Positions 3,358 through 36,016 of a stretch of DNA of 44,591 nucleotides are shown piece after piece. Numbering within the stretch: the first letter of the stretch is position 1; each line of letters begins with the position of its first letter. Origin of the DNA: an uncultured Verrucomicrobiota bacterium (GTDB lineage: Bacteria; Verrucomicrobiota; Verrucomicrobiia; Limisphaerales; UBA1100); the NCBI GenBank assembly GCA_902551155.1, contig CACDBG010000012.1, positions 1-44,591 on the forward strand. Direction: 5' to 3'. The position numbers and the translations under genes were made by a program. The notes beneath the pieces were generated by a model. That model made no database searches and was not told the origin of the DNA. It saw nothing but the letters and a program-made list of their open reading frames with translations.

Positions 3358-4620
3358 ATGCCACTTTTTAGCTACATTGCCATCGACAAGGATGGAAAGC
3401 AAAAGGAGGGGACTCTTGAAGTCACTAGCCAGAATGAGGCTATTTCACGAATCAAGGAGATGGGCTTTTATCCAACTCAGGTAGCTGAGGTTAAGGACAC
3501 ACCTGAGGAGGCAAAAAAGCGCAAAGAGAAAAAAGGAAAGAAAAAGGGGGAGATCGGTTTTGCTTTACCGTTTGTAAATACCAAAGAGCTTTGTATGTTT
3601 ACCCGCCAATTGGCGGTTTTGATTGATGCGGGTTTGCCGCTCATGAGGGGGATGAGCACCCTTTCCAAGTCTATTCCTAACGTTTACTTCAAGGGCGTCA
3701 TCAATGATATAGGAGAAACGATTGGAGGAGGTTCCACATTTTCTGAAGCATTAGCCAAGCACCCCAAGATTTTTGATAAATTGTATATCAATATGGTCAA
3801 GGCTGGAGAGATTGGCGGTGTGTTAGAGATTGCACTGAACCGTTTGGCTGAGTTCCAAGAAAAAGCTGAATCCATCAAGGGAAAGGTTAAGTCCGCAATG
3901 TTCTATCCGGTCGCGGTAATGATTGTGGCTACTATTATCGTTGGCATATTGATGACTTTTGTGATTCCGAAGTTTAAGGCAATTTTTGCCGATATGTTGG
4001 GAGATGGAGAAACGCTTCCAGGGTTTACCATGCTGGTACTGAATATTTCAGATGCTATTAGGAATAACGTGGTGGCCGTTATTGGAGGCGTATTTGCCTT
4101 CTTTATTGTTTTCAAACTAATAGTAGGAAAAACCAAGGCTGGTAGATGGGCTTGGGACAAATTTAAATTGATATTGCCAGCTCTCGGACCATTGGTAAGA
4201 AAAGTAGCAATCGCGCGTTTTGCTCGCACCTTGGGGACTCTCATTTCTTCAGGTGTGCCTATTCTTCAGGCTTTAAGTATCGTTAAAGAGACTGCTGGTA
4301 ATGTTCATCTTTCCAATGCGATCGATAAGGTATACGACGCGGTAAAAGAGGGTGAAACCATTACTAAGCCTCTTGAGGCTTCGGGCATCTTTCCTCCAAT
4401 GGTTGTGAGCATGATTGACATTGGTGAAGAAACCGGTGCCTTGCCCGAAATGTTAGTGAAAGTCGCCGATGTTTATGAGGAAGAGGTGGATAATGCGGTT
4501 AGCGCTCTTACATCACTTTTGGAACCTGTGATGATTTGTTTTCTAGCTGTTGTCGTTGGAAGTATCGTTATTGCGATGTTTTTGCCGCTTATCAAGATGA
4601 TGGATAAGCTCGGATCCTAA
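3358..4620 (+). CDS. PilC/GspF-family inner membrane platform protein
   Basis: FTRQLAVLIDAGLPLMRGMSTL and FARTLGTLISSGVPILQAL duplicated T2SSF domains, C-terminal TM helix. Confidence 0.93.
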   Translation: MPLFSYIAIDKDGKQKEGTLEVTSQNEAISRIKEMGFYPTQVAEVKDTPEEAKKRKEKKGKKKGEIGFALPFVNTKELCMFTRQLAVLIDAGLPLMRGMSTLSKSIPNVYFKGVINDIGETIGGGSTFSEALAKHPKIFDKLYINMVKAGEIGGVLEIALNRLAEFQEKAESIKGKVKSAMFYPVAVMIVATIIVGILMTFVIPKFKAIFADMLGDGETLPGFTMLVLNISDAIRNNVVAVIGGVFAFFIVFKLIVGKTKAGRWAWDKFKLILPALGPLVRKVAIARFARTLGTLISSGVPILQALSIVKETAGNVHLSNAIDKVYDAVKEGETITKPLEASGIFPPMVVSMIDIGEETGALPEMLVKVADVYEEEVDNAVSALTSLLEPVMICFLAVVVGSIVIAMFLPLIKMMDKLGS

Positions 4621-4659: not shown

Positions 4660-4688
4660 TTGATTTTTACCCAAAATGGATGTAAATA
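4660..4688 (+). promoter_or_regulatory. candidate sigma70-like promoter upstream of the BrnT-like gene
   Basis: TTGATT - 17 bp - TAAATA in the 114-bp gap after pilC; visual match only. Confidence 0.3.
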
Positions 4689-4734
4689 CTTTGTAGGGAC
4701 TTGGGATGGCTATATGAATCAGACATTTTGAAGA

Positions 4735-5037
4735 ATGGATTTTGATTGGGATAAGTGGTCAGACCGCCCTGGTTGTTCCTTGAAACAGCGCGAGATAGAA
4801 GAATCCTTCGAGGATCCGTTTTCTGTCAGGCTTTTACCGGATGCCCCTCGTTTTTCAGTAAACGCCAGATATTTCAATTTTGGAAAAACGTCCTCTGGGG
4901 AGGGGGTTTTTGCGGTCTACCGAGCAAATGGCAGGCAGATTCAGGTGGTATGTGCGCGGTTGTTTACGCCGGAGGAAGGGTTCTTTTACGAGCGCCAGCA
5001 GGATAAATTATTAAGTAATAATGGAGGATCGGGATGA
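4735..5037 (+). CDS. BrnT-like toxin family protein
   Basis: FDWDKWSD...FEDPFSV...ARYFNFGKTSSGEGVFAVYRANGRQIQVVCARLFTPEEGFFYE matches the BrnT layout (FEWDxxK...F.DP...GR...VVYTERG..IRIISARxATxxERxxYE). Confidence 0.65.
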   Translation: MDFDWDKWSDRPGCSLKQREIEESFEDPFSVRLLPDAPRFSVNARYFNFGKTSSGEGVFAVYRANGRQIQVVCARLFTPEEGFFYERQQDKLLSNNGGSG

Positions 5038-5303
5038 TAGTTAGTGATTGGAAAGAAGTTCCGGAGTTTTCCGGGGAAAAAGAGGAAGCAGCCTTTTGGG
5101 AAGAGGCACAACTGGACGTGCGATTGATGGAAAATTCAGTGATGGCCAGCCCAACCTCCAAGGATTCGGTAACCATTACTCTACGCATGGATCCGCGCAT
5201 GTTGTCCAAAATCAAGTGGATTGCCCGAACACGTTTCCTGAATTACCAAAGCATGATCAAGCAATGGTTGAGCGAACGAATGGAGGAAGAAAATAAAAAA
5301 TAA
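5034..5303 (+). CDS. CopG/RHH-type antitoxin-like protein (CopG_antitoxin family layout)
   Basis: ATGA overlap with the upstream gene; 'VPEFSGEKEEAAFWEE...SVTITLRMDPRMLSKIKWIARTRFLNYQSMIKQWLSERMEEE' resembles BrnT-partner CopG antitoxins. Confidence 0.68.
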   Translation: MIVSDWKEVPEFSGEKEEAAFWEEAQLDVRLMENSVMASPTSKDSVTITLRMDPRMLSKIKWIARTRFLNYQSMIKQWLSERMEEENKK

Positions 5304-5890: not shown

Positions 5891-6691
5891 ATGAAAGAGA
5901 AAATAGAAATTACAAGAAGGGCCTTCACGCTGGTTGAGCTTTTAGTGGTTATCGCTATCGTTGCTATTTTGGCCGGTATTTTATTGCCGGTGATTGCCAA
6001 GTCCAAAACAAAAGCCAAAGTTGCTACTGCCCGTTTTAGTATAAAGGACTTGGACGCAGCGATTAAAGCCTATAGGACCGACTATCAACGGTTTCCGATT
6101 CCGGCCAACTATCCACGAAATATGTTTGGTGATGCGAGTGTAGACCCGGTTCCGCTACAGGCTCTAGCCAACAGGAATGCAGAATACAAAATCCCTTTCC
6201 CGACGCATTCTAATAATAACCAGCCTGCTCGTAACAGCGATATCATGTATATCCTCATGAACGATGTAAATGCGAACGGTTCGAACCCAGGAGGATCCAG
6301 GAATCCGAAGAAAAATATCTATCTCTCACCCAAGGAGTTGGGCCCAGAGAATAGTGCCAAATCGCTTAGAAAAACAGGAGTTTCCGATGCCAGAATTTAC
6401 CGTGATCCATTTGGAAATAGGTTTAAGATATCCATGGATTTAAACCGGGATGGGTACTGTTTCGATTATTATTACGGGTCAAAATTTGGCGGCACATTCG
6501 CGGAGGAAGGCTTAATAACACATCAGGCCAAAGTTAGGTGGAATGGGCATCCGCTTAATGGGCAAGATCTCCAGTACAGTGCGTTTAAGGGGGATGCTAT
6601 GATTTGGACTGCGGGTCCTGACAGGGTGGTTGAAGGAATGAGCCAGGACGCGAATAATCCTGATATTGATAATATAAAGAGCTGGGATTGA
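5891..6691 (+). CDS. GspG-like pseudopilin / type IV prepilin (second)
   Basis: RAFTLVELLVVIAIVAILAGILLPVIAKSKTKAKVATA; C-terminal TAGPDRVVEG...DIDNIKSWD. Confidence 0.85.
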   Translation: MKEKIEITRRAFTLVELLVVIAIVAILAGILLPVIAKSKTKAKVATARFSIKDLDAAIKAYRTDYQRFPIPANYPRNMFGDASVDPVPLQALANRNAEYKIPFPTHSNNNQPARNSDIMYILMNDVNANGSNPGGSRNPKKNIYLSPKELGPENSAKSLRKTGVSDARIYRDPFGNRFKISMDLNRDGYCFDYYYGSKFGGTFAEEGLITHQAKVRWNGHPLNGQDLQYSAFKGDAMIWTAGPDRVVEGMSQDANNPDIDNIKSWD

Positions 6692-6692
6692 T

Positions 6693-7892
6693 ATGAATTT
6701 AGATGGCCAGAAGACGGTTGAACTAGATAGAAGGCAAACCGCCTTTACTCTAGTTGAATTGTTGGGGGTCGTGGCGATTATTGTAATTATTCTTAGGCTT
6801 ACGCTTCCTGCATTGGATGGTATTTTAAGCGGAGACGGGGACGGGATGGCGCGAACTCAGGTGGTCGGTGATCTTAACCGCGCGCGTCAAATGGCATTGG
6901 AGAAGGGGGTGTCAGTCTACATGGTGTTCATGCCGCTCTATGATGATATACATCCGAACTCAGGTGACCCGCACAGCACACCCCCTATACCCCCAATAAA
7001 TACAGTGGTTGATGGCACTGTATTCCGTGATGCTGATAAGCGGGCTTATTTTTCACAGGATAAAGGCGTGAATGCGCTCCTTGGCTCTCAGTTAACTAGT
7101 TACGCAATTTATGCAGAGTATATGCCGGGAGATCAGCCGGGAAACCCATCAACCAAGTGGTTGACTGACTGGAAGGAGCTGCCCGCTGGGTATCATTTTA
7201 ATCGAACTGAATTAAATCTGCTGGAGCGGTTAAAGGTCCAATACTTGAAGGGCAATAAACCACTTCCTGCTAATCGTATCGGTCTTGAGCTTCCTCATAT
7301 AAAATTTAATAAGCGAGGGGAATTAGAATCGAAACGAGGTGATAGGGTTATGGGGGGTATATTTCTTTCGGTTGGCAAGGGCGGGGTGTTGCCTCCAGGG
7401 AAAAATCAATCTGATAAATATATCCCCGGTGACGCGGACCCACCTGAGGCGGTTGCTTCTGCTGATAGGAAATGGCTTTTCATCAACGGCATAACGGGGC
7501 GTGCCGAAATTAAAGAGTTGTCAGAGGAGGAGGCTGCTGCTGGGTTAGATTTAGAAAAAAGCGAATATCAGCTTTTTATCTATGCATCGCCTAAATATCC
7601 CCCTGATTTTCATGCCGCACTCATTAATTCTACCGATGTAACCGGGTACGTTAGTAAAGTGGGTGCAGTTTATGATTCAGGCTGGCCTGGGCCGAGAGAG
7701 TGGAGTGTGGGGCCGGACGGTCTCTCCTATAGGAGTAAAACTTGGCCTTCCAGTAATGATTACGTGCCGGCTTTCTCGCGTTTACTAGATCGACAATCGG
7801 CTCTCACTCTCAAGAGAAAAATTGAAAAGTTAGTGAGTTCGGACCCAGCTCTTAGAGGGAAAAAGTTAGAAGTTTATATCAGGAGTAAATAA
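6693..7892 (+). CDS. Verru_Chthon cassette protein D-like (GspH-like pseudopilin)
   Basis: AFTLVELLGVVAIIVIILRLTLPALDGI followed by DLNRARQMALEKGVSVYMVF (GspH-like); position in cassette. Confidence 0.72.
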   Translation: MNLDGQKTVELDRRQTAFTLVELLGVVAIIVIILRLTLPALDGILSGDGDGMARTQVVGDLNRARQMALEKGVSVYMVFMPLYDDIHPNSGDPHSTPPIPPINTVVDGTVFRDADKRAYFSQDKGVNALLGSQLTSYAIYAEYMPGDQPGNPSTKWLTDWKELPAGYHFNRTELNLLERLKVQYLKGNKPLPANRIGLELPHIKFNKRGELESKRGDRVMGGIFLSVGKGGVLPPGKNQSDKYIPGDADPPEAVASADRKWLFINGITGRAEIKELSEEEAAAGLDLEKSEYQLFIYASPKYPPDFHAALINSTDVTGYVSKVGAVYDSGWPGPREWSVGPDGLSYRSKTWPSSNDYVPAFSRLLDRQSALTLKRKIEKLVSSDPALRGKKLEVYIRSK

Positions 7893-9592
7893 TGATTTTA
7901 ATGCGGCTTATAGCGCCAGGAAAGCGAGCCTTCACCTTGCCGGAGGTAGCTTTGGCTATTGGGGTGATAGCATTGGGCTTAGTCGGAGTATTTTCTATTC
8001 TTCCTTTCGGATTAACGGCGCAAAAGAATAATCAAGAGGAAACGATTATTCGTTACGAAGCTCAATATTGGCATGAGGCATTACTTTCAGATGGTTTACT
8101 GTTAGAGGATATTAATGAGCGAGTAGACCGGGTAGAGGTGCATGATGAAAATGCTTCTGTAACCCATACCTTTATTAATCCACTTCGTTCTCGCCCTGAC
8201 CCGCAGAACAGTGCTCGGGAAATAGTCAGGTACGAGGAGAATGGGACTGTTAGAACCCCTTACTCTTATCCGGCTTCTAGCCTTTCCTTATTCAAGGCGA
8301 AAAAATATTGGTCTTCAGATGTGCAGGGATGGTTGTTAAATCCCATTGATATAACAGGTCTCAGTGGAAGTTTTGCTCTGGTAAGGGCTATTAACGGTCC
8401 GTTGTTTGATCGTTTTTATGGGGCGGAGCCACAGAATGATGTTTATCATTTTCCAAACCGTGATTTTTCCGCCGGTTATATTTTGCAAGTGCAGCCGGAG
8501 AATACTTCGTTCGGTTCTGAGATTAGGATGACCTTTTATTGGCCATTATTTGAGGAGGTTATGGAAAAGCTAGAGCCTAAGCCGACTACTACGGGAGGGC
8601 AAATTAATACAATTAAGAGCGTTATTGTGGATTCAATGTCGCCAGATTCAGTTATTAAATTTAAAACAAAAAGTTTTACGATAAAAGTACCGGGAAAAAT
8701 TCACCAAGCTTTGACTGAAGATAAACTTACTCTTCAGGAGCGACGTTTTATGGGAGAAATGCGTGTTCTCAGGCCGGGAGAACGGATAGATTCTGATGAT
8801 CCCAGATTGAAGGGAGTCTTTAAGGACTATTATTCTTTTTCTCATCCTTATGCAGATGATCTAGGGAACCCATGGGTTAGCCCGCTACAATATCGCCCGA
8901 GGAGAATGTTTAATAACGGGAGTAGTTTAATTTTTAAGGTGAAGATGCCGGGAGGTAGTTGGGTTAATGTATTAAATAACTATCCTGATAAGAATAAAGA
9001 TCCATCATTCCGGCCAGACAGGTGGGCTGTTCAACTTCCGGGAGAACTAGAGATTTGGGCAAGGGCGAGTTATGAAAATATTTTGGGGCCGACAAGTCAT
9101 TCGGGCATGTGGCTCCATTCGAATGGGCACCCTCCTGTTCAGATCGGCTGGGTAGGATCCAATCAGTTTCCATTTTTTGGAGTTCTTAAGTATAATGGTT
9201 CTGATGAAGGTTCTTATGCTGTTTTGGGGCCCGGCCAATTGCCTTACCATCTGGTTAACACCAGTAATTTGGGCCCCGAAAATAACTACAGGATTAGCTT
9301 TCTTGGGCTTGATCTAAAGGGGTTGCCTCAGGACTGGGAGAGCGTTTTACGTGGGTATGCTGATACCATAACCGACTCCGATGCGGTTTTGCTGAGCCGC
9401 CCTAAAATTCTTACCCCCAGGCCCAATCTGGTTACTGATGCAGGAGGTTATTTTGTGCTCGCCAGAAGGTTGAGGGTGACTACTCATCGTCCAGCTACCA
9501 CCGATGAAAAGGTGTTTAATGGTCAGGGTCTTGCTCTTTGGGATTGGGTTCCCGATGAGGATTCTGTGCCTAGATTATGGAGGGTTGAGTAG
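7892..9592 (+). CDS. Verru_Chthon cassette protein B-like (GspI-like pseudopilin)
   Basis: RAFTLPEVALAIGVIALGLVGVFSILPFGLTAQKNNQEE; start overlaps the upstream stop (TAATG). Confidence 0.74.
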   Translation: MILMRLIAPGKRAFTLPEVALAIGVIALGLVGVFSILPFGLTAQKNNQEETIIRYEAQYWHEALLSDGLLLEDINERVDRVEVHDENASVTHTFINPLRSRPDPQNSAREIVRYEENGTVRTPYSYPASSLSLFKAKKYWSSDVQGWLLNPIDITGLSGSFALVRAINGPLFDRFYGAEPQNDVYHFPNRDFSAGYILQVQPENTSFGSEIRMTFYWPLFEEVMEKLEPKPTTTGGQINTIKSVIVDSMSPDSVIKFKTKSFTIKVPGKIHQALTEDKLTLQERRFMGEMRVLRPGERIDSDDPRLKGVFKDYYSFSHPYADDLGNPWVSPLQYRPRRMFNNGSSLIFKVKMPGGSWVNVLNNYPDKNKDPSFRPDRWAVQLPGELEIWARASYENILGPTSHSGMWLHSNGHPPVQIGWVGSNQFPFFGVLKYNGSDEGSYAVLGPGQLPYHLVNTSNLGPENNYRISFLGLDLKGLPQDWESVLRGYADTITDSDAVLLSRPKILTPRPNLVTDAGGYFVLARRLRVTTHRPATTDEKVFNGQGLALWDWVPDEDSVPRLWRVE

Positions 9593-10881
9593 TGAACTTT
9601 TCTTTGGGTCATTTTCCAATAAGGATAAAAGCTTTCACAATGGTGGAATTAATGGGGGCTGTGACAATAGCCTTAGTTCTTATCATTATGCTTTATAATA
9701 TATTTGATAAAGTGCAGAGGGTTTTTGTCATTGGGCAAAACCGGGCAATTGCCATGGATGAATCTCGCTCGGCAATGGATATGATGGTTGAGGATTTTCA
9801 GCAGCTAAATGTTATTGGGGACCTAAACGGAAGCGAGCCTAACCTGAATTGGTTGCCAGAACGCGGTGTTATGTGGGATCAAAATAAAGGAGCTTTTGAA
9901 TATACATTGCCTGTCTATACGAGCTTGATAGCTCAACCATTCAAAATCACAAGGGTATCGATTAACGGGACGCGATTAGGTGCTAATGCTACACTCAGTG
10001 CGCAACCTGCTGAGTTTATCGACCATAATGGAAATGAAGCTCCCATAGCGAGTTTTCCTGCGGGTTCAAGCTTGGGGTTATATCACCATAATTGCCGGTT
10101 TTTCACATATGATGGCGGTGCATGGCGGCTGGTGCATTACAGGTTTGGAACTAGTGAGCGTTACTTTATGCCAATTTCAGATCCTCTGGGTATTCAAGCT
10201 GATTTAATGGATACTCCGGTTGGTGCTCTGTGGTTGTATCGTTCGCCTCCCTCTGGTCGTTCTGGGCTTAATGGGCATATACCTGAACATGTGAGTTTTC
10301 AAAATTTGGAAAGACCTCCAGTATGGAATTCTCTAACAAATTGGCCAAAAGGGTCATTGGTATTTTTTTATGAAGATAAAAATTATTATCGTGCTTTATC
10401 CAGTGTGTTTTCAGGATCATTAGTTTTTCCACCAAATCAAGATGCCTTAAATTGGGCAAAGCTAAATTCAGGAGGAATTGATGCCCCCATGGGCTTTTCC
10501 CGGCTAATAGATGGGGTAATTCATTTCCGTGTTCGGGCGGTGGCTGCAAATAATTTTAACCGTGGTATGGAAGAATACATTTATCCCAAAAATCCCTTTA
10601 GAGGCAACCAGCTTCCATCTTATGTCATGCTAGAACTTGCAGTTTTAGACCGTAAGCTTCGAGAGGAGGTTGGGAAAGGGATGGAGCAAGAGCTGGAAGG
10701 GGTGCAGCTTTCTGTGGCAGAAGATTCATTCATTAGCGCAAGTTATTCGTCGGCTGATCAGAAAGTGCAGCGTGAAAGAAGATTGGCCTCTGAAAGATGT
10801 AGGTTGCGATTAAAAAGGATAAACGAAAATCTGGATCGAGTTTATTTTTTTAGGCAACTTGTTAAAGTGCGCAACCAATAA
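9592..10881 (+). CDS. Verru_Chthon cassette protein C-like (GspJ-like pseudopilin)
   Basis: KAFTMVELMGAVTIALVLIIMLYNIFDKVQRVF...ESRSAMDMMVEDFQQL; GTG start overlaps the upstream stop (TAGTG). Confidence 0.74.
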   Translation: MNFSLGHFPIRIKAFTMVELMGAVTIALVLIIMLYNIFDKVQRVFVIGQNRAIAMDESRSAMDMMVEDFQQLNVIGDLNGSEPNLNWLPERGVMWDQNKGAFEYTLPVYTSLIAQPFKITRVSINGTRLGANATLSAQPAEFIDHNGNEAPIASFPAGSSLGLYHHNCRFFTYDGGAWRLVHYRFGTSERYFMPISDPLGIQADLMDTPVGALWLYRSPPSGRSGLNGHIPEHVSFQNLERPPVWNSLTNWPKGSLVFFYEDKNYYRALSSVFSGSLVFPPNQDALNWAKLNSGGIDAPMGFSRLIDGVIHFRVRAVAANNFNRGMEEYIYPKNPFRGNQLPSYVMLELAVLDRKLREEVGKGMEQELEGVQLSVAEDSFISASYSSADQKVQRERRLASERCRLRLKRINENLDRVYFFRQLVKVRNQ

Positions 10882-10887
10882 TAAGGA

Positions 10888-13800
10888 ATGTTTATGAGCC
10901 GAAATAATACTGAGAGAGGGGCGGTTTTGGTCGTTGCTTTGGTTATGTTAGCCATGGTGACTTTTTTGGTCGTTGCGTTCGTTGGCTTTGCACGTTTTGA
11001 GCGCGCCTCGGTTACGGCTTCTTTGAAGCGCACTGAGGCAATGTTTATTCAGGGTAATAGTCAGTCAGTTTCGTGGAAAACTGCAGTCAATCACGTATTC
11101 ATTGACAGCAATGCAACACCGACTATTAGGGTGTCGCAAAGATTTTCTACGAATCAAAACGTACCTGTCTACATAGATACAACTGGTGACGGGGTGCAGG
11201 ATACTATTTCTACTTACTTAAATTTGAATGCGGAGGTGAACAATCCTTTGCTTGGTGGTGATCGTTTTTTTCAGCCCTCAAATCCGGAGGCATTGGTATT
11301 CGGAGACCCTGAATGGATCGGGTTGCTTGAAAATCCAAATGAACCTCATGGTCCTGAGAATCATTTTGTCGCCCGGACGGCGTATATGGTTGTTCCGGTT
11401 AGTGAGATACTAAATGTCCGTTATAACCACCGTTTTGGGGCTAGCGCATTAAATAGTCATTACCGCGGTCAAGGGGGTTCTCCTCGTAGCATTGACCTGG
11501 CCGCACCGTTGTTTCATATGCATCCTGAATGGTTTAGTGGTCCAAGACGTAATCCTTATCTATATGCCGGCGCCTTGCATGAATTAGGTGCAGCAGTGGG
11601 GGATGCTTACTTTTATGGTCGCCCTTCCTTAGAGTTTAAACAGGCAAGAATTGAGAATAAAACAACCCCGGTTACTTTCCGAGCGCATCAGGCCGCTGAA
11701 AAGCTGTTAACTGAGACGGATCTGGCAGGAGGGTTTGGTGGTTCATTGAATGCTTGGTTCAGGGAAAATGGTGAAGGGAAAAAACCGTATGGGTTATATA
11801 AATTTTTAGGAACCTTTTCGGCTGCTGAATTGCCTGAGGAAAAAATGGGTTTCGATATCAGCTCTATTCGCGATGAATCTACAAGTGGCTTTGGCTATCC
11901 ATATATTGATGCTTTAGGAGGGTCTGCTGTGAGGTTTCTACAGCCTCACGGCCTGAAAGATGGCGATAAGATAGAAGAGCAAGCAGGGCTGCCTCCACAC
12001 ATCGTTGACCCAATTAAATTTGATCTCGTTACCTCTGACCCAGCGGAAATAAAAGCGTTGCTCATTAAGCTTATCCAAGGCGGATCCCTTCTAACCACTG
12101 TTCCCCATCGGTTGAATCCGGGTGATACAGTCAGTATGGTTATGTCTGGTATAGATTCCAATTGGCGCATATTGGCTAGAAATAAACCAAGCGATCCTTG
12201 GGTGCCTATTTCTTCCAGCCCCGGAATAGTTACTCCCAATATGATTCAGGTGCCCGCTAGTGGGAGGTTGCCTCTTCATTGGAAAACAGTAGCCTCCAAA
12301 TTGAATTCCCCCTCCTCAACGCCATTAACTCATAAGATAAGATTTAGTGTTGATGGAGAATCAGCTATTCAAGTTAATTTTAATCGTTTTCCTCCGCCGG
12401 TAGAATATGCCTGGGGTATAAAAGATACTGTTACTGGTGGCTGGGTTTCGCAGATGCTCATACTCGAGGATCCTGTTGCACCTTTGCCAGCCTCCCTACA
12501 GGATGTTACCTGCCAACTTGTTTATCGGCCTACGTATTTGGAGGCTGATAATATTCCCTATTTCACCAAAGTATGGGATAAGCAAACAGTTTCCATGCAT
12601 CGTTCAGCACAGTTGGATGAGCAATCAAGGGTACAGTTTAGAAGCAAGCCTGACTCTATTCCTTTTATTTCTCCTGGCCTCAGATCTGTTAATCCTGGTG
12701 ATATATTCAAGTACGAAGCGAGCGGTGAATTTATTACTTCCCTACCCAGTAGGTGGGAAAATGGTGATTATGTTCGGTTCCGGAGCGATGCTTCGTTTTC
12801 GAGCGGAGGAGCAGTTCATCCTGATCATGTTTTTCAGATGAAACTGATTGATACAACTGCCACTGAGCAAAAATTTAAGCTTAGCTTTATCGAGCCACCT
12901 TATGGTGAGCTTAAATTAACGGATGCAAAGAATTATAAATTGCATTTAGTACATCGTTTTAAGACAGATCGACTTACTGATGCAGTGGAGAAAATGGCTG
13001 GGGCCATGCTAAATGAATCCTTGGATGTTGAAAGTGGTGGGGCGACTCCTTTCAAGCTGGGTGGGCAAACTCTACCAATTCCAGATCCATCTAATACTTT
13101 CCCTCTTATTTACGGTATAGGCGGTCATCATGAACCCATGGGGCTATGGCATCAGACCAGTGGAGGTATTCCCATTGTTTCCTATACTAATGAGACTGAG
13201 CGTATCCTTCAAGTGGCCGCTAATATTGCAGAAATTTATTCTGACCCACCATTAACGCAACTCAAGGGCAGGGATGTTGTTTATTCTTCAGGAATGAAGT
13301 ATTTGCCATCTGGGGAAGAGGCTGCAGCTGATGGGACAGTTAGTGCGCAGATGCGTTACCTAGTTGTTAGTAAAGCGGGGATAGATTATGGCCCTTATCG
13401 AGCATTTTTTGAACCTGATTCGCCCTTTAAAATTTCAGATGGCTTTATCAGGGGGACCATTAAATTGATCGAGAAAGCCGCCTTTGACTTTGATAAGGCC
13501 CCGACGATTCTCCCTAATGACAAGCTGCTTGCTCAGTCAGCGCCTTGTAGGGTGAGGCTTTATGAAGAACAAGCTAATAGCGGTTCCTGGAAATGGAATC
13601 TTGAAGAGTGGGTGTGGAAAAATGGATATGCGGTTAGTGCGGGCAAATTTCAGTGGTTGGGGCTTCATTTGGCCATTGAGATGGAGAGCGGTCGTTTTAT
13701 TAAAGTTTTTCTCGATGGAAAAGAGGTGGTTAATTATGCATCATCTTTAAGGGTAGGTCCTGAGTTGGGGGCGACAAACTGGAAAGCTGTTGATCCTTCC

Positions 13801-16320
13801 ACTGGAAACCTTCGGCAGGGAGGTTTATGGTCTCTTGGTGGAGAGGCCTACTTTACCTGTATTCATCCTGCTGCGCCAGCACCGGGAGGTGCGTTGCCAG
13901 CGGGATGGATGTATCAATCTAATGCACGGCCACCAAATCCCCTTCCTAATGCCTATGAAGGAGTTTTCCGCCGTGATTACCTTAATAATGTTTATCTAAG
14001 TAGCTTGCAGAGAAGAGCTTGGTTCACGGGTGATGATTCTGCTACAAGTTGGTACCGAAGAGGCGCGCCCAAGATATTGGGGGTAAAGGATCGTTCCGGG
14101 AATTATGCAGGTCGAATGCCGGCGATTAGTGAAGTTTCACTGAGACTTACCTACGATCGCAAAAATAATAAGGTAATGGCTCGTTTGGCGATGGAAGTAA
14201 ATATGCCTCCAGCAGGGCTGCTTCCATCGTGCCAACTGCAGGTTAAAGAATTAACCCTGAGTGGTAACGGGATGCCAGAGTACCGGGATGTTAATGGTTT
14301 TAATGCTGAAGATGGGGCTGCCTTTCCCGTTAATGGAAATATAAATAAAACTACCACGTTAGATCTTTTTACTACAGGTAGTGATATTTCAGCTGTATTG
14401 CTCTCCGGGACCTTGCCGAACGGTTTTAATCGCGTTCTTTCCGATTCTGCCACCGGTGCTGTTAAGTCACTGGCTGATATTAAGTTTAGTGATATGCAAG
14501 TTTCATTTAAGGCACAAATAATAGCAGGAGGCAGCAGGGTGGTTGATTTCTTTGATGGAACACTGGCCTTACCCTCAGCCAGTTTGGGAAATCCCATGAC
14601 CAATCATGAACTCCATGCTCCAGTTTGGAACGCAACAGATGCTGGAGGGTACGGGGTAGGCAAGGTTGTGTTGGATCCCGTTAATCATAATTATTACCAG
14701 CTCCTGCCTAGCGGTTCGGGCACAGTCAAGCCGCCTGCTGCCGGATGGGCGCAGCTAACTGGCCGAAAATTTCGTAAGATTGATCTTTCCAGTCAGGTAA
14801 ATGATCCATTGGTCAATGGTTCACAAAGAGGTTGGCAGACTCGTGTTTATGCGCCCACTTATGTATCGGGTGGGAAGTTGGTTTCTAATATGAATGAAAC
14901 CAAGGTCTTGTGGAGTCCGTTGGTTATTGACCCTCCGATTTCAATAGGAAAAATGTATACAGATAAATCGTTCGCCACGGTATTCGGTTTGCCTGCAAGG
15001 CATTATTTTGGCGTGAATTTGGGTGCGGTTAATGATGCTTATCAACCATGGGGAAGAACTAATACTGGCGGAAAAAATGACTCCAGTATTAAGGACCCAG
15101 CTATTAATCCTTTTTATAGTTGGTGGAAATTTCCTGACGTTATGCGTGGTGGGGTAAAGAGCGTTGGTTGGCTTGGTCAAGTGCACCGCGGGACACCGTG
15201 GCAAACGTTATACCTGAAATCCAAGCCTAGTCCGGGGGTAGTTGCGATACAATCTATCAACGATGACACTGGTGTAATCACGACTGCTGAACCTCATAAT
15301 CTAGAAGTGGGTGATGTAGTGGGATTCTCAGGTAAAAAGCACGATACATGGACTGCACCGGGTGATTATCTTGGTAAAGATTATGTAGTAAAGTTAGTTG
15401 TTGGTCCTAATCAGTATACTTTAACCGAGGCCGGATTGGATGCGGTTATCAATTGGAATAAGGTTGGTGATGGATTCTACCTCACGCCAGACTTGTTTCT
15501 TGATTCCAAATTATGGACCGATTGGGCGGGAAGTTCCGATACCAAGCCGGCAAATGATCGTCGTTTATTGGAGGCATTTTATGTGTCAGGAGGTAAGAAG
15601 GTTCGTGGGAGATTGTCGGTCAATAACCGTACGGCTGAAGCGTGGAGTGGAGTGCTTCATGGAGTTTCCCTGCCCTTTATTCCTGATGTGGCCGGGTCGC
15701 CTCCGATTCCCAAGCGTATACTAGGGGTTTATGCCGGCCAAACAGGATGGAGTAGTAACTATATTGAAACCGATAAAGGGGCTACTGATACGAAATGGAA
15801 TTTTGGGATATTGGGAGGGATAGCTGCAGAAAGGAAAAAAGGTCGGTTCAAGAGAGCGACCGATATCCTTGGGGCGCCTCAATTAACTGATCAATCCCCT
15901 TATCTGCCCGCAATCGTGGGGGCAGCTAACCTTGGTCAATATTACTCCATGGTCGGTAAAGTTGATGAGTTGGATATAGAGAGAATCCCCATGCAGATAC
16001 TTTCTCTGCTAAAGGCAGGCGGCCCCAAGCGATATCAAATGTATATTTTTACCCAGCAATTAAAGCCAGCGCGCCGGTACCAGCCGACAGTTGGAGAGGG
16101 TAGGCCCGGGTTTGATGATGATGGGAATGTTTATAACTATGAAGTGGTCAGTCAGGCAGCTGAACGGGTGCTCGTTGAGTTGATTGGCGCTGAAGAATGG
16201 CATGAATCACTCAAGAGAGGTAATTATGGGCAATATAGGGATGCTGACGGAACCCTGAAGGACCTATCCAAGCCTTACCCAAAAATTATCAGAAAATATC
16301 CGATTGACATGGGATATTGA
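10888..16320 (+). CDS. Verru_Chthon cassette protein A-like giant protein (GspK/PilX-like N-terminus, 1810 aa)
   Basis: ERGAVLVVALVMLAMVTFLVVAFVGFARFERA prepilin-like segment lacking Glu5, as in GspK; very long extracellular region; last gene of cassette. Confidence 0.76.
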   Translation: MFMSRNNTERGAVLVVALVMLAMVTFLVVAFVGFARFERASVTASLKRTEAMFIQGNSQSVSWKTAVNHVFIDSNATPTIRVSQRFSTNQNVPVYIDTTGDGVQDTISTYLNLNAEVNNPLLGGDRFFQPSNPEALVFGDPEWIGLLENPNEPHGPENHFVARTAYMVVPVSEILNVRYNHRFGASALNSHYRGQGGSPRSIDLAAPLFHMHPEWFSGPRRNPYLYAGALHELGAAVGDAYFYGRPSLEFKQARIENKTTPVTFRAHQAAEKLLTETDLAGGFGGSLNAWFRENGEGKKPYGLYKFLGTFSAAELPEEKMGFDISSIRDESTSGFGYPYIDALGGSAVRFLQPHGLKDGDKIEEQAGLPPHIVDPIKFDLVTSDPAEIKALLIKLIQGGSLLTTVPHRLNPGDTVSMVMSGIDSNWRILARNKPSDPWVPISSSPGIVTPNMIQVPASGRLPLHWKTVASKLNSPSSTPLTHKIRFSVDGESAIQVNFNRFPPPVEYAWGIKDTVTGGWVSQMLILEDPVAPLPASLQDVTCQLVYRPTYLEADNIPYFTKVWDKQTVSMHRSAQLDEQSRVQFRSKPDSIPFISPGLRSVNPGDIFKYEASGEFITSLPSRWENGDYVRFRSDASFSSGGAVHPDHVFQMKLIDTTATEQKFKLSFIEPPYGELKLTDAKNYKLHLVHRFKTDRLTDAVEKMAGAMLNESLDVESGGATPFKLGGQTLPIPDPSNTFPLIYGIGGHHEPMGLWHQTSGGIPIVSYTNETERILQVAANIAEIYSDPPLTQLKGRDVVYSSGMKYLPSGEEAAADGTVSAQMRYLVVSKAGIDYGPYRAFFEPDSPFKISDGFIRGTIKLIEKAAFDFDKAPTILPNDKLLAQSAPCRVRLYEEQANSGSWKWNLEEWVWKNGYAVSAGKFQWLGLHLAIEMESGRFIKVFLDGKEVVNYASSLRVGPELGATNWKAVDPSTGNLRQGGLWSLGGEAYFTCIHPAAPAPGGALPAGWMYQSNARPPNPLPNAYEGVFRRDYLNNVYLSSLQRRAWFTGDDSATSWYRRGAPKILGVKDRSGNYAGRMPAISEVSLRLTYDRKNNKVMARLAMEVNMPPAGLLPSCQLQVKELTLSGNGMPEYRDVNGFNAEDGAAFPVNGNINKTTTLDLFTTGSDISAVLLSGTLPNGFNRVLSDSATGAVKSLADIKFSDMQVSFKAQIIAGGSRVVDFFDGTLALPSASLGNPMTNHELHAPVWNATDAGGYGVGKVVLDPVNHNYYQLLPSGSGTVKPPAAGWAQLTGRKFRKIDLSSQVNDPLVNGSQRGWQTRVYAPTYVSGGKLVSNMNETKVLWSPLVIDPPISIGKMYTDKSFATVFGLPARHYFGVNLGAVNDAYQPWGRTNTGGKNDSSIKDPAINPFYSWWKFPDVMRGGVKSVGWLGQVHRGTPWQTLYLKSKPSPGVVAIQSINDDTGVITTAEPHNLEVGDVVGFSGKKHDTWTAPGDYLGKDYVVKLVVGPNQYTLTEAGLDAVINWNKVGDGFYLTPDLFLDSKLWTDWAGSSDTKPANDRRLLEAFYVSGGKKVRGRLSVNNRTAEAWSGVLHGVSLPFIPDVAGSPPIPKRILGVYAGQTGWSSNYIETDKGATDTKWNFGILGGIAAERKKGRFKRATDILGAPQLTDQSPYLPAIVGAANLGQYYSMVGKVDELDIERIPMQILSLLKAGGPKRYQMYIFTQQLKPARRYQPTVGEGRPGFDDDGNVYNYEVVSQAAERVLVELIGAEEWHESLKRGNYGQYRDADGTLKDLSKPYPKIIRKYPIDMGY

Positions 16321-30377: not shown

Positions 30378-31601
30378 TTATATTGTCTTTTGGTATAGCT
30401 TAATGTTTTGCAGAAGCCCTAAGGCTGCTAACGAACAGATCACAGACGAACCGCCTGAGCTCAGTAGGGGGAGGGGTAGGCCTGTGACAGGCACCATGCG
30501 TATGTTCATGCCGATATTAACAAATACGTGGAAGAACATCATTGTTACCACTCCCATGGCAAGAATCCTACCCAGCCGGTCACGACTTCGGATCGCGGTT
30601 CTAATTCCAACAGCAATGATTGTTCCGTACAATAAGATCACTGCAGTGCTGCCGATAAATCCACTTTCCTCAGCGATGACTGAAAAAATAAAATCATTGT
30701 GGGCTACTCCTCTTGGTAAATATCCGTATGTGTTTTGTATTCCATTCTTCCAGCCTTTGCCAGTGAGTCCGCCAGATCCGACAGAAATCATAGCTTGAAC
30801 TACATTATAGGAATCCTGTTTTTGTAGAGCTCGTGCGCGGCTTATTTCTGTATTTGTGGCGTTGGGGCCTGCGTAATGTTTGGCATAATCTACGCCAAAA
30901 TATACCATCAATCTGCGTTTTTGATGGTCAGGTAGTCGGATTGGCTTCCACTCGTTGGGTACAAAAAAGACATACGCTAGGGCAAGGACTGTTAAAATTG
31001 TTGCTCCGCCTACAAGTTTTTTCATAAATCCCCAAGGCGCTCCGGCAACGTACATCATCACGAGTCCTGTGGGAAGGATCATTAGCGACGTGCCAAGATC
31101 TGGCTCCATTAGTATTAAGGCAAATGGAAGCATGGCTAATCCGATTCCTTTTAGAAGCACTCTGGAATCAGATAACTCTCTCCTTGGTCGACTTAAGAAT
31201 TGCGCTAAAGCCAAAACAAAAGCGACTTTGGCCATTTCTGACGGTTGGAACTGTGTAAAGCCAAGGTCGAACCACCTTCGGGCTCCATAGCGCATGGAGC
31301 CAATGCCGGGAATTAAGACCAGTGTCAGCATGGTGATATTAAGCCAATAGAAAACGTATGCCCACCGTGCTATCTGGTTGTAATCTTTCAGGCAAAGAAC
31401 AAATGCAATGGTCACCCCTGCAAGATAAAAAATACCCTGCTTGAAGTAGGGTTGTTTTATCAGTGTGGAAGAAGAGAAAAGCTCATTGTTGTACGTTGCG
31501 CTGTAAACGAAGAGTAGACCGAAAGTCATTAGGCCAAACAAAGCAATTAATAGTACCTTATCAACACGATTCCAGGGTAATATTTGAGTCAAAAAATTCA
31601 T
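30378..31601 (-). CDS. rodA: Rod shape-determining protein RodA (SEDS glycosyltransferase)
   Basis: QPSEMAKVAFVLALAQFL, EPDLGTSLMI, VPVTGLPLPLLSSGGSS. Confidence 0.95.
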   Translation of the reverse strand: MNFLTQILPWNRVDKVLLIALFGLMTFGLLFVYSATYNNELFSSSTLIKQPYFKQGIFYLAGVTIAFVLCLKDYNQIARWAYVFYWLNITMLTLVLIPGIGSMRYGARRWFDLGFTQFQPSEMAKVAFVLALAQFLSRPRRELSDSRVLLKGIGLAMLPFALILMEPDLGTSLMILPTGLVMMYVAGAPWGFMKKLVGGATILTVLALAYVFFVPNEWKPIRLPDHQKRRLMVYFGVDYAKHYAGPNATNTEISRARALQKQDSYNVVQAMISVGSGGLTGKGWKNGIQNTYGYLPRGVAHNDFIFSVIAEESGFIGSTAVILLYGTIIAVGIRTAIRSRDRLGRILAMGVVTMMFFHVFVNIGMNIRMVPVTGLPLPLLSSGGSSVICSLAALGLLQNIKLYQKTI

Positions 31602-33503
31602 TTATTTTCCCGCTAAGGAACCATTTCTTTTTTGGTCGATTAAAACTTCGTAGATTTCTTTAGCTATTGGGGCGCATGTTTTGCCCCCAGAAACACCTCT
31701 CTCAACCATGACAACGACAGCATATTTTGGTTTTTCGAAAGGACCAAATGAAACAAACCATGTAATTTTGTGAAAGTCTCCTGGTTTTTTTACTTCGGCA
31801 GTGCCGGTTTTCCCACAGATATTGTAATCAGGAATCATTGCGGGCTGTCCGGTTCCCTCTTCTTCGGCTACATCTGCAAACATGGCTTCACGTATTATTT
31901 TCAAGCTATCAGTTCGCTTTATTAAAAGTTGACTGCGTTTTTGCGCACGACGGAATCTTATCGTGTTTTCTTTAATATTTGGATTTGGTGACTGTATTCT
32001 ATCAACCACGCGTGGATGATAAATTGTGCCTCCGTTTGCGATGGCTGAGGTCATAAGTGCCATTTGAAGGGGTGTAACGGTAATTTCGCCTTGGCCAATG
32101 CAAAGGTTGGCTGTGTCTCCTTCGCTCCAGCCATCTCTTACTCTTTTGATTGAAGGGAATTGTCCTGCCGTTTCCTGTTCAGGTAGCAGGCCTGTTTTTT
32201 CTCCTAAATGGAACTGTTTTCCCATCTGGACTATATGCTCCTTGCCGTGCCCTTCGACTACTGCTTGGTGAATGAAATAATAATTGCTGGATTTTTTAAA
32301 GGCCCGCTTAAAGTCGTACATTCCTGGGCTTGCCGTGTCCTTGATTGATCGTTTGCCTATTCGAAAACTCCCGGTCGATTCGATTAGCTTTTTTGGATTT
32401 AAACCGTTTTCCAGTGCTGCTAGTCCAGAGATAATTTTAAATATTGACCCAGGAGGGTAACGTTCTTGAGTTGCGCGAAAGAGAAGAGGAGATGGTCGGT
32501 TAGTGAGGTATTGATTCCAGAGGGCGTGACTTATTCCAGGTGTAAATTTATTTGGATCAAATACAGGAGCTGACACCATTGCGGTTATATCACCTGAATT
32601 TACATCCATCACGATGGCGGATCCGGCCTTTGCTCCACATTTTTTTAAGCCTTTCTCTAAGGCGTTCATTGTGGCGTTTTGTATTGTCATATCCAGAGTT
32701 AATACAACATTGCTGCCGGGCTGTGAGGTAACTGGGGTTGATTCCCCCTGTCGGTAGCCGAGGTTGTTAACCTGAACAGCTCTTGTCCCTGGTTGGCCGC
32801 ATAAATATTGGTCAAACATTTTTTCTAATCCCACTTTTCCAGAATAGTCAGGCAGTCGGTAATTGTAAGGGAGTTCCTCCTTGGCCTGGTAATTGTATCG
32901 TTTCAGATGGCCTGTAAGGTGGGCGGTTGAAGGCGACGGGTACATTCTTTTTGGTGTAGCTTCCAGCTCAAGTCCCGGCACTTTCCAGCTGTTTTCCGCA
33001 AAGCGAGCTACATTAGTGATCGACAGCCCTGTGATTACCGGCAACGGAAGTGCTCTTTGGTTGGTGAAGTGGGATTCCATTTTATTTGGGGAGATGGCAA
33101 TTTGTTGATCCAATTGAAGCATTTCAATGAATCGTTTGACGACTCTGTGCCTTACTTGAATCTCAAGTTGCCTGCTTTCAGCTGCACTCAAACTTTTGGC
33201 GGGTCGGCTTCTTTTCCATTCTTCTCTGAAGTGCGGTCGTAATTCCTCGAGATAAGCATTTACTACAAACGTAGGGATATCTTGGGCTATTGGTCTTCCG
33301 TGTTTGTCCAAAATGCTGCCTCTTACCGCAGGGATGCGCACCGTTCGCATCGATTGTATCTCTTGGTCATTGATATATACGAGAGCTGTTGCTACTTGCA
33401 CATACCATAATCCAATGAGCAGCAATGTTATGCCGATGCCGATCGCTGCACCAGTCACATAAACTCGCTTATCTGTTTTCGGTTTATCTAGTGAGTTATC
33501 CAT
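31602..33503 (-). CDS. mrdA: Penicillin-binding protein 2 (ORF open to 33554; MDNSLDK start at 33503 likely)
   Basis: RGSILDKHGRPIAQDIPTF, YPPGSIFKIISGLAAL (SxxK), SSNYYF, CGKTGTAE. Confidence 0.94.
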   Translation of the reverse strand: MDNSLDKPKTDKRVYVTGAAIGIGITLLLIGLWYVQVATALVYINDQEIQSMRTVRIPAVRGSILDKHGRPIAQDIPTFVVNAYLEELRPHFREEWKRSRPAKSLSAAESRQLEIQVRHRVVKRFIEMLQLDQQIAISPNKMESHFTNQRALPLPVITGLSITNVARFAENSWKVPGLELEATPKRMYPSPSTAHLTGHLKRYNYQAKEELPYNYRLPDYSGKVGLEKMFDQYLCGQPGTRAVQVNNLGYRQGESTPVTSQPGSNVVLTLDMTIQNATMNALEKGLKKCGAKAGSAIVMDVNSGDITAMVSAPVFDPNKFTPGISHALWNQYLTNRPSPLLFRATQERYPPGSIFKIISGLAALENGLNPKKLIESTGSFRIGKRSIKDTASPGMYDFKRAFKKSSNYYFIHQAVVEGHGKEHIVQMGKQFHLGEKTGLLPEQETAGQFPSIKRVRDGWSEGDTANLCIGQGEITVTPLQMALMTSAIANGGTIYHPRVVDRIQSPNPNIKENTIRFRRAQKRSQLLIKRTDSLKIIREAMFADVAEEEGTGQPAMIPDYNICGKTGTAEVKKPGDFHKITWFVSFGPFEKPKYAVVVMVERGVSGGKTCAPIAKEIYEVLIDQKRNGSLAGK

Positions 33504-34068
33504 GAATGTGAGGGCCACGAATAATCCGAGTTGAGGTGTCGTACGGAGCAACAAGCGGCTGTTCTTCTACTGATCGATTTAGCCAGTTAACAATGGGGAA
33601 AAAGACCAGTGCTAATAGGCCGCTCATGCCGGCTGTAGCTATCCACTGCCAAAAAGAAAACCAGCCGAACAGGGGCTGTTGGTTTGAAAGCAGTAATATA
33701 CACAAAGATGTAATTGAGACAAAGGCACCGGCAGATGCGCCCAGGATGAATCGTGTTCCAACATTGTTGAATGCAATGTGTTGGCTATTCATGTGTACGA
33801 TAAACCCTAATGTGTAGAGTGGAAGGATAGTAGTACCTATAGAGCTCGTAGAAAGCGCACTTTGGGTTAGGGATCCAAATATAGACAGTATTCCGATTGT
33901 TGAGATTGGGCAGCGAAGAGCAACCACTATTAGTAAGGCGGGAAGTGGGTCTATTTGGAACCCGAATGTTCTCTGTGGAAAGCTCCATGTAGTCAGCACA
34001 TACGTACTTACAAGGGCAGTTGCTAGGATTGATAATGTGAGAAAACCTCTCATGGCATAAGTACCCAA
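33496..34068 (-). CDS. mreD: Rod shape-determining protein MreD
   Basis: Multi-TM protein between mreC and mrdA; position plus hydrophobic profile. Confidence 0.78.
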   Translation of the reverse strand: MGTYAMRGFLTLSILATALVSTYVLTTWSFPQRTFGFQIDPLPALLIVVALRCPISTIGILSIFGSLTQSALSTSSIGTTILPLYTLGFIVHMNSQHIAFNNVGTRFILGASAGAFVSITSLCILLLSNQQPLFGWFSFWQWIATAGMSGLLALVFFPIVNWLNRSVEEQPLVAPYDTSTRIIRGPHIHG

Positions 34069-34856
34069 ACTTCATGGAGTTGGGAGGTGTTGGTTGAGAG
34101 TTTTACTGTTGCTGTTGTCGTTAGGGATCCGGGTCTGGAGTGTATTGCAAGAAGTTTGCCGACATATATTCCTCTGGGAAAAATTTCGCCAAGTCCACTG
34201 CTATATAGTTTGTCGCCCGGTCTGGCAAGAGTGACTCCCGGCAGGTGGGTTAGCTTTACTAATGTCGGGTCGTAAACTGTTTCTCCAGTTGATTTGAGGA
34301 TGCCGGTCTCTTTGGTTGCCTCAATGGTCACTGAAACTCTGCAATCGGGGTCTCCCAGTAAAGCGATCTGTGAGTGGTTTGGGTACGCCTCTTGCACTCG
34401 ACCTATTAGGCCAGTTTTGGCAACCACCGGCATATCAATTTTTACACCGTCGTTCGCGCCTAAATCAATTAGGATTGATCTCCACCAGTTAGATGGGTCT
34501 CGCCCAATGATGCGTGCCAAACGAGGGTTCCACTCTGGCCGGGGGCGCATTTTGAGTTGTTCGCGCAGGTTCCGGTTTTCCTTTGATAATGGTACTGTTT
34601 GTTCAAGTTTTAGCTCTAGTATGGAGTTTTGGCGTTTTAGTTCGGCGTTTTCATCTAGCAGGGCTTCACGGGAAATAGTTTGGTTAGATAGGTATTCCCC
34701 GGTGCTTTGGGCTATTCTTTGGGTTTTAAATAACGGAGTATATAAGCTGCTAAACAAGCGCTTTGCACGCTTTGCCGCTGTAGGTGACAAACTAAAGCAG
34801 ATTACTGCAAAAAGCAGAACTATGCTAGTTGTGATGACGTATGGTCTATTAGTCAT
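34050..34856 (-). CDS. mreC: Rod shape-determining protein MreC
   Basis: N-terminal TM, coiled coil, ARIIGRDPSNWWRSILIDLGANDGVKIDMPVVAKTGLIGRV. Confidence 0.94.
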   Translation of the reverse strand: MTNRPYVITTSIVLLFAVICFSLSPTAAKRAKRLFSSLYTPLFKTQRIAQSTGEYLSNQTISREALLDENAELKRQNSILELKLEQTVPLSKENRNLREQLKMRPRPEWNPRLARIIGRDPSNWWRSILIDLGANDGVKIDMPVVAKTGLIGRVQEAYPNHSQIALLGDPDCRVSVTIEATKETGILKSTGETVYDPTLVKLTHLPGVTLARPGDKLYSSGLGEIFPRGIYVGKLLAIHSRPGSLTTTATVKLSTNTSQLHEVWVLMP

Positions 34857-34897
34857 TTACCCGGGTGGTCCGGGCGAGCGAATGTGAGAGAAATCAA

Positions 34898-35920
34898 TCA
34901 TGAAGTGGCTGCTGCATTGCGCCAGTAATCAATATTTTGAAGAACCTTTCCAGTTCCGTTTGCTACTGAAATGAGAGGGTCGTCAGCAATGACTACAGGA
35001 AGTTGGGTTTCTTTTGCTACGAGTCGGTCGATTCCTCTTAAAAGAGCACCTCCGCCAGCTATAACAATCCCGCGATCAACTAAATCTCCGGAGAGTTCCG
35101 GCAGGCACTGTTCAAGAATTTGCCGGATGGACTCGAGGATTGCAGTTAAAGGCTCTTTGAGCGCCTCGCGTATTTCCTCTGAGCGGATAGTTAATGTCCT
35201 TGGTAGTCCTTGATTTAGGTCGCGGCCCTTTACTTCCATAGTTAATTCGTCTTCCAACGGGAAGGCCGAACCGATTTTCAGTTTGATTTCCTCAGCTGTT
35301 CGTTCGCCGATTAAAAGGTTATGGGCGCGTTTCATATGATTAATGATCGCACCATCGAATTGGTCGCCACCAACCCGCAGGCTAGTAGCTTGAACAATGT
35401 TTGCCAGAGAGATGACAGCAATTTCTGCTGTTCCACCACCAATATCTACCACCATATTACCCGCTGGTTCTGCGACGGGAAGGCCAGCTCCGATGGCTGC
35501 GGCTAAAGGTTGCTTGATGGGGTAGAATTCGCTTGCCCCTGCACGCGTTACTGAATCCTCAACGGCTCGTCTTTCCACCTCAGTTATTCCGGAAGGGACC
35601 GCAACGACTACTCGAGGTTGGACTAGCTTCCGGTGATGAACCTTGGTGATGAAATAGCGAAGCATTGCTTCGGTTACGTCAAAATCTGCAATCACACCAT
35701 CCTTCATCGGACGGATGGCAGTGATATTAGGAGGGGTGCGAGCGAGCATGGATTTTGCCTCACTGCCAACTGCGAGTACATTTTTTGTACCTGACTGGAT
35801 TGCTACCACTGAAGGCTCCCGCATGACTATTCCGCGGTCTTTAAGGAAAACCAGCGTGTTTGCAGTGCCTAAATCTATCCCAATATCATTGGAAAAAAGG
35901 CCTTTTAATCCATCAAGCAT
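34898..35920 (-). CDS. mreB: Rod shape-determining protein MreB
   Basis: [64 protein letters not shown]. Confidence 0.97.
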
Positions 35921-36016
35921 CAAATGTTTCGTGACTCGCGGCTGACAATGCCCTTGGTGCCTAGGGCTAACAAGGAAAGGTTATTCAGGGTATTTCCTAA
36001 TAAAGTGCAAAAAAAA

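What the first reader, a model, noticed from the sequence alone, without database searches (positions are those of the whole stretch)
4735..5303. BrnT-like/CopG-like toxin-antitoxin pair embedded in the secretion/pilus operon
Between pilC and the first pseudopilin sit two small overlapping ORFs (ATGA). The first matches the BrnT RNase-toxin layout; the second ends in an RHH/CopG-like domain preceded by the FWEE-type segment seen in CopG partners of BrnT-like toxins. Placement inside an otherwise tight structural operon suggests an addiction module, autoregulation of the pilus genes, or a recruited regulatory pair.
Basis: partly seen in the sequence, partly recalled or inferred. Interest (0 to 1): 0.68.

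Follow-up and report, generated by a model that had tools for sequence, protein, structure and literature searches.

The report
Domesticated toxin-antitoxin-like pair controlling pilin genes
Two small genes related to a bacterial toxin and its antidote have become a fixed, single-copy part of nearly every genome in one order of Verrucomicrobiota, where they sit with a highly conserved switch-like DNA element in front of a set of pilin-like genes and have lost a key residue of the toxin, so they look like a tamed gene switch rather than a poison-and-antidote module.

Summary
The two overlapping ORFs are real. The second is a CopG-type antitoxin (PF12441, above cut-off). The first is a remote BrnT relative: 17.5 bits alone, but 32 of 33 relatives match PF04365, and profile comparison and the fold search both give BrnT. 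It is not an ordinary addiction module. The antitoxin is single-copy in 153 of 168 genomes of the window's order, whereas canonical BrnT over the cut-off occurs in 31 of 144. Both genes are under strong purifying selection and track pilC divergence. All members lack the BrnT Lys-His pair, whose His is critical for toxicity in a tested homologue. The conserved unit is: promoter plus 43-bp element, toxin-like gene, antitoxin, pseudopilin genes. pilTBC is optional, and a terminator often follows pilC. In four genomes without the pair, pilC is followed by pilin genes and the element is missing too; three of them carry a sigma-54-like promoter instead. Best reading: a domesticated, probably non-toxic BrnT/CopG pair that autoregulates the pseudopilin operon (inferred, no binding assay). 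Limit: Verrucomicrobiales-like genomes keep the pair with neither pilins nor the element.

The parts
3358..4620 (+). pilC / T2SSF inner-membrane platform gene, end of the pilT-pilB-pilC group
   Evidence: PF00482 4.6e-63; TIGR02120/NF052606 sub-cut-off
4660..4688 (+). promoter-like element: TTGATT (4660-4665), 17-nt spacer, TAAATA (4683-4688)
   Evidence: sequence; TTGACA-type -35 conserved upstream of the element in relatives; not reported by the generic scan
4681..4723 (+). conserved 43-bp element overlapping the -10 (TGTAAATACTTTGTAGGGACTTGGGATGGCTATATGAATCAGA; core palindrome TACTTTGTA 4687-4695), proposed operator for the RHH partner
   Evidence: 41.3 bits with the family matrix; next best site in the window is -2.6 bits; about 47-69 nt 5' of the toxin-like start in relatives
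4735..5037 (+). BrnT-like partner (degenerate 'toxin'), 100 aa
   Evidence: PF04365 sub-cut-off, 32/33 relatives match, hhalign 98.3% against canonical BrnTs, Foldseek to 7vd7_A and 3u97
5034..5303 (+). CopG/ribbon-helix-helix antitoxin-like DNA-binding partner, 89 aa
   Evidence: PF12441 47.7 bits
5308..5880 (+). pseudopilin 1 (prepilin-type N terminus), 4 nt after the antitoxin-like gene
   Evidence: PF07963 1.2e-7; TIGR02532 above cut-off
5891..6691 (+). pseudopilin 2
   Evidence: PF07963, PF08334
6693..7892 (+). pseudopilin 3 (N terminus like Verru_Chthon cassette protein D)
   Evidence: TIGR02596 1.5e-7, below cut-off
7892..9592 (+). pseudopilin 4 (N terminus like Verru_Chthon cassette protein B)
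   Evidence: TIGR02598 5.6e-4, below cut-off
9592..10881 (+). pseudopilin 5 (N terminus like GspJ / Verru_Chthon cassette protein C)
   Evidence: TIGR01711, TIGR02599, below cut-off

Best explanation
The pair is a domesticated BrnT/CopG toxin-antitoxin derivative that works as a dedicated autoregulator of the pseudopilin operon it heads. Proposed mechanism: the CopG/RHH protein, bound to its BrnT-like partner (as BrnA and BrnT form a 2:2 complex), sits on the 43-bp element that overlaps the -10 and start region of the promoter at 4660-4688. It represses, or holds within a set range, the transcription of toxin-like gene, antitoxin and downstream pseudopilins, which follow with little or no gap. 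The BrnT-like protein has kept the fold but lost the KH pair. It most likely acts as a co-regulator that tunes DNA binding through its ratio to the RHH protein, not as a ribonuclease. Shown: gene identities, promoter/element conservation, single-copy near-universal presence in the order, purifying selection, tight link to pseudopilins, loss of the element with loss of the pair. Inferred: DNA binding to this element, repression, complex formation, lack of toxicity.
For: Core-gene distribution: antitoxin single-copy in 153/168 genomes and 71/77 genera, against canonical BrnT over the cut-off in 31/144, sometimes in several copies. dN/dS below about 0.2 in both genes; divergence correlates with pilC (Mantel r 0.86 toxin-like, 0.78 antitoxin-like, 0/2000 permutations). 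69 of 79 species-level loci have pseudopilins directly downstream; 39 of those have pilC directly upstream, and where pilC is not adjacent the upstream genes differ while pair and pseudopilins stay together. Element: consensus match 27-39 of 43 positions in most loci, shuffle maximum 26 in 10,800; one clear site per locus and normally one exact core site per genome, always at this locus. Natural absence: four genomes with pilC followed by pilin genes but no pair also lack the element; three carry a sigma-54-like promoter there (3 of 11 matches in 2.5 Mb scanned). Terminator after pilC in 10/29 loci against 0.5 expected. KH absent; the equivalent His was critical for toxicity in Aave_1720 (PMC10714953).
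Against: Ten of 79 loci, and 10 of 12 further genomes taken mostly from other families, carry the pair with no pilins nearby and no recognisable element; seven of the first ten and three of the second sit next to a glyoxalase-like gene. The pair must therefore do something useful there too. Presence across the phylum sample is only 28/388 at strong score. Residues F, E, R and Y of the BrnT site remain, so a shifted catalytic site is possible. No expression or binding data exist.
Confidence: 0.62

Rival explanations
1. A still-active type II toxin-antitoxin (addiction or stress) module with a divergent BrnT RNase that happens to be fixed in front of the pseudopilins; downstream genes simply ride on its promoter.
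For: BrnT fold, PF04365 relatives, conserved F, R, E, Y; ATGA-coupled toxin-then-antitoxin order; purifying selection on the toxin-like gene.
Against: Lys-His pair missing in every member; single-copy core-gene distribution, with pilC-like divergence, unlike canonical BrnT in the same order; near-constant physical link to pseudopilins.
Confidence: 0.17
2. The pair is mainly a trans-acting or metabolic regulator (or other housekeeping device) common to several verrucomicrobial lineages; the pilin link in this order is a secondary fixation.
For: Verrucomicrobiales-like genomes keep the pair beside a glyoxalase-like gene or elsewhere, without pilins or element.
Against: In the window's family the exact element core occurs only at this locus, once per genome; pilin linkage also occurs in two other families, one of them in another class with a partial element.
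Confidence: 0.13
3. The BrnT-like protein is a specific RNase that trims the operon's own transcript (post-transcriptional control of pseudopilins).
For: BECR-type fold retained, several conserved Arg plus Glu and Tyr.
Against: His and Lys of the site missing; no conserved transcript element was sought or found.
Confidence: 0.06

Closest known systems
BrnT/BrnA toxin-antitoxin (Brucella abortus; Salmonella-type 7vd7)
   Same: Toxin-then-antitoxin gene order, BrnT fold (Foldseek 7vd7_A prob 1.00, 3u97 prob 0.97), RHH-type partner, control region at its own promoter; BrnTA autoregulates (PMC10714953).
   Different: No KH pair, score below the family cut-off for the window member, single-copy core gene linked to pseudopilins, a long and highly conserved control region.
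CopG_antitoxin PF12441 family
   Same: Full-length match above cut-off, with an N-terminal W..P.F..E.E..FW segment followed by an RHH-like C terminus.
   Different: Extremely conserved RHH part across the order; below the cut-off of NCBIfam BrnA NF047399.
AmrZ/AlgZ (Pseudomonas RHH regulator of type IV pili)
   Same: An RHH DNA-binding protein that controls pilus genes (title of a reference cited in PMC4550253).
   Different: AmrZ is a global regulator without a BrnT partner (own knowledge); no homology tested here.
Verru_Chthon cassette (TIGR02596, TIGR02598, TIGR02599)
   Same: Downstream pseudopilins 3 to 5 resemble the N termini of cassette proteins D, B and C.
   Different: All below the curated cut-offs; the cassette models include no toxin-antitoxin-like pair that I know of.

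Membership tests
BrnT_toxin (PF04365) | score above the curated cut-off (34.5 bits) | tested here: not met
   17.5 bits for the window protein; one syntenic relative at 29.3 bits; 32/33 relatives match at E <= 0.1, best 4.2e-9
BrnT_toxin (PF04365) | BrnT fold | tested here: met
   AF2 pLDDT 82; best PDB hits are 7vd7_A and 3u97; hhalign 98.3% against canonical BrnTs of the same order
BrnT_toxin (PF04365) | Lys-His of the NxxKHG motif, needed for full toxicity | tested here: not met
   Columns variable and without conserved K/H in 54 non-redundant members; conserved in canonical BrnTs; function of the His and Lys from PMC10714953
BrnT_toxin (PF04365) | ribonuclease activity / toxicity | not testable with these tools
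   needs expression assay
CopG_antitoxin (PF12441) | full-length profile match above cut-off | tested here: met
   47.7 bits against 28, residues 7-81 on profile 1-78 of 79
BrnA equivalog (NF047399) | score above cut-off (60 bits) | tested here: not met
   18.5 bits
Type II toxin-antitoxin module | two small coupled genes, toxin-like protein plus DNA-binding partner | tested here: met
   ATGA overlap; the toxin-like gene lies next to the antitoxin in every antitoxin locus examined
Type II toxin-antitoxin module | autoregulation through an operator at its own promoter | tested here: inconclusive
   43-bp element conserved and lost together with the pair; binding not shown
Type II toxin-antitoxin module | toxicity neutralised by partner | not testable with these tools
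   needs co-expression assay

The most novel reading that the evidence does not exclude
A BrnT/CopG toxin-antitoxin module was captured early in one verrucomicrobial order as the dedicated promoter switch of the pseudopilin operon, lost its RNase function, and is interchangeable with sigma-54 control of the same genes: lineages without the pair lack its operator and carry a sigma-54-type promoter instead.
Probability: 0.4. Interest if true: 0.75.

Novelty: new variant of a known kind. Interest (0 to 1): 0.62.

Why it matters
Whether chromosomal toxin-antitoxin modules become useful host genes is an open argument, and clear cases of whole modules turned into core regulators are few (own knowledge). 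Here a pair with a lost catalytic residue, a highly conserved control element, near-universal single-copy presence in an order and natural absence lineages give a directly testable example. It also offers a regulator for the pseudopilin clusters of Verrucomicrobiota; no paper joining Verrucomicrobiota, toxin-antitoxin and pseudopilins was found in the held library.

Tried and rejected
Single-sequence PDB searches of both proteins gave only chance hits; the toxin-like profile put a BrnT-type toxin (7vd7_A) first, but at E 0.69. The antitoxin-like AF2 model was low confidence as a monomer (pLDDT 62), so no fold search was made with it. The idea of a larger regulon was tested: exact core sites occur once per genome at this locus in the family, and single-mismatch extras are at control level. 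The Verrucomicrobiales-like loci were searched for the element upstream of the toxin-like gene and of the glyoxalase-like gene: none. A structural role of the pair in the pilus is unlikely because four lineages keep pilC followed by pilin genes without it. Literature searches for Verrucomicrobia with BrnT or pseudopilins gave nothing relevant; the Heaton 2012 BrnT paper is not held.

Full report
WHAT IS THERE. The two ORFs are at the stated coordinates: 4735..5037 (100 aa) and 5034..5303 (89 aa), overlapping by ATGA. Upstream are pilT, pilB and pilC; downstream come five genes of pseudopilin type and one very long reading frame. The second protein matches CopG_antitoxin PF12441 over its length, 47.7 bits against a cut-off of 28. 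The first gives only 17.5 bits with BrnT PF04365, cut-off 34.5.

THE FIRST PROTEIN IS A DISTANT BrnT. Of 33 aligned relatives, 32 match PF04365, the best at 4.2e-9. Profile comparison with canonical BrnTs taken from the same order gives 98.3% probability, E 1e-14. The AF2 model (pLDDT 82) has as its two best PDB hits 7vd7_A (a toxin-antitoxin complex from Salmonella) and 3u97 (BrnT of Brucella); that search has no hit at or below E 0.001, so the fold call rests on probability (1.00, 0.97) and on agreement with the sequence profiles. In the tested homologue Aave_1720, the His of the KH pair was critical for toxicity, Phe-29 was critical, and Lys and Glu were partly needed (PMC10714953). Canonical BrnTs of this order keep N..KH. 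The family here has no conserved Lys or His at those columns in 54 non-redundant members, while the Phe, the Arg, the Glu and the Tyr remain. The protein is therefore probably, but not certainly, not an RNase.

IT IS A CORE GENE. The antitoxin profile finds one copy in 153 of 168 genomes of the order at least 90% complete, 71 of 77 genera. Of 14 antitoxin-negative genomes examined, seven (G018, G006, G419, G426, G470, G493, G533) show no full-length close pilC either, only more distant paralogues or a fragment, so missing contigs may explain about half of the absences. Canonical BrnT above the family cut-off occurs in 31 of 144 genomes of the same order, in up to several copies. dN/dS between close relatives is about 0.02 to 0.2 for the toxin-like and 0 to 0.14 for the antitoxin-like gene, and pairwise divergence of both follows that of pilC (Mantel r 0.86 and 0.78). 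Across the sampled phylum only 28 of 388 genomes have a strong match, so this is a property of certain orders and families.

THE CONSERVED UNIT. Among 79 species-level loci with readable downstream sequence, 69 have pseudopilin genes directly after the pair and 10 have none. Thirty-nine of the 69 have pilC directly upstream. In those of the rest with long upstream sequence, the upstream genes inspected were unrelated to one another, yet the pair and the pseudopilins remain together. Ten of 29 non-redundant pilC-adjacent loci have an intrinsic terminator between pilC and the pair, 0.5 expected; the window's own genus does not show one. The pair thus most likely heads the pseudopilin unit.

THE CONTROL ELEMENT. 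About 55 nt before the toxin-like start lies a TTGACA-N17-TGTAAATAC promoter-like sequence fused to a 43-bp element, consensus near TGTAAATACAWTGTAGTTACAWTGCATGGGCGATTGATTTACA, with palindromic cores spaced one helical turn apart. Matches to the consensus reach 27 to 39 of 43 in most loci, against a shuffle maximum of 26 in 10,800. A matrix built from these sites gives one clear site per locus, always before the toxin-like gene (the matrix was trained on these loci). In the window the score is 41.3 bits, and the next site is below zero. In the genomes of the family the exact core occurs once, at this locus, and four further genomes of the order have their site at this locus too (two of them with one mismatch in the core).

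NATURAL ABSENCE. Of the order's genomes without the antitoxin, four have pilC followed by pilin-type genes with no pair: G408, G407, G523 and G442 (in G442 the pilin genes are read from similarity only). None has the element near pilC. G408 is a single-contig assembly and G407 is of the same genus. In three of the four, a sigma-54-like sequence (TGGCACG or TGGCATG, four bases, TT[G/T]C) lies before the first pilin. That pattern occurs only 11 times in 2.5 Mb scanned and in none of the pair-bearing loci near the pair. The pattern was chosen after seeing these sequences, so this is a lead, not a test, and G408 and G407 are not independent.

MECHANISM. BrnA and BrnT form a 2:2 complex and autoregulate their own promoter (PMC10714953). 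The best-supported reading is the same logic kept for another purpose: the RHH protein, with the BrnT-like partner, binds the 43-bp element over the -10 region and sets transcription of itself and the pseudopilins. Steps shown: gene identity, element conservation, linkage, co-loss, selection. Steps inferred: binding, repression, complex formation, absence of toxicity.

LIMITS. In Verrucomicrobiales-like genomes the pair persists without pilins and without the element, often after a glyoxalase-like gene. The pair therefore has, or had, a role not confined to pilins. Two other families keep the pilin link, one from another class with a partial element (TGTAAATACAATGTA; L199).

VERDICT. A real, strongly conserved, domesticated toxin-antitoxin-like pair; a new variant of a known kind; interest 0.62.

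Noticed in passing
L218, L219, L220 (pair-less loci of the order), just upstream of the first pseudopilin: Sigma-54-like promoter sequences (TGGCACGATAGTTTC, TGGCACGAATGTTTC, TGGCATGAAATTTGC) where the pair and its element are missing, suggesting a promoter swap.
   Followed up: partly
window 6693..10881: Pseudopilins 3 to 5 resemble the N termini of Verru_Chthon cassette proteins D, B and C (TIGR02596, TIGR02598, TIGR02599), all below the cut-offs.
   Followed up: partly
window 10888..16320: 1810-aa protein with a hydrophobic N terminus directly after the pseudopilins, no NCBIfam match; a long protein of similar start (1280-1445 aa) follows the cassette in L218-L220.
   Followed up: no
window 39156..40518: lpxC-like ORF ends at 39803 and a second, overlapping frame (from 39778) continues with lpxC-like then fabZ-like sequence: possible frameshift, in the organism or in the assembly (named by eye).
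   Followed up: no
L025, L058, L067, L072, L074, L089, L093 and L190, L193, L198: In Verrucomicrobiales-like genomes the pair follows a conserved glyoxalase-family (PF00903) gene instead of pilC.
   Followed up: partly
window 30378..35923 (minus strand): Reading frames that look like rodA, a penicillin-binding protein, mreD, mreC and mreB in a row; ordinary (named by eye from the translations).
   Followed up: no
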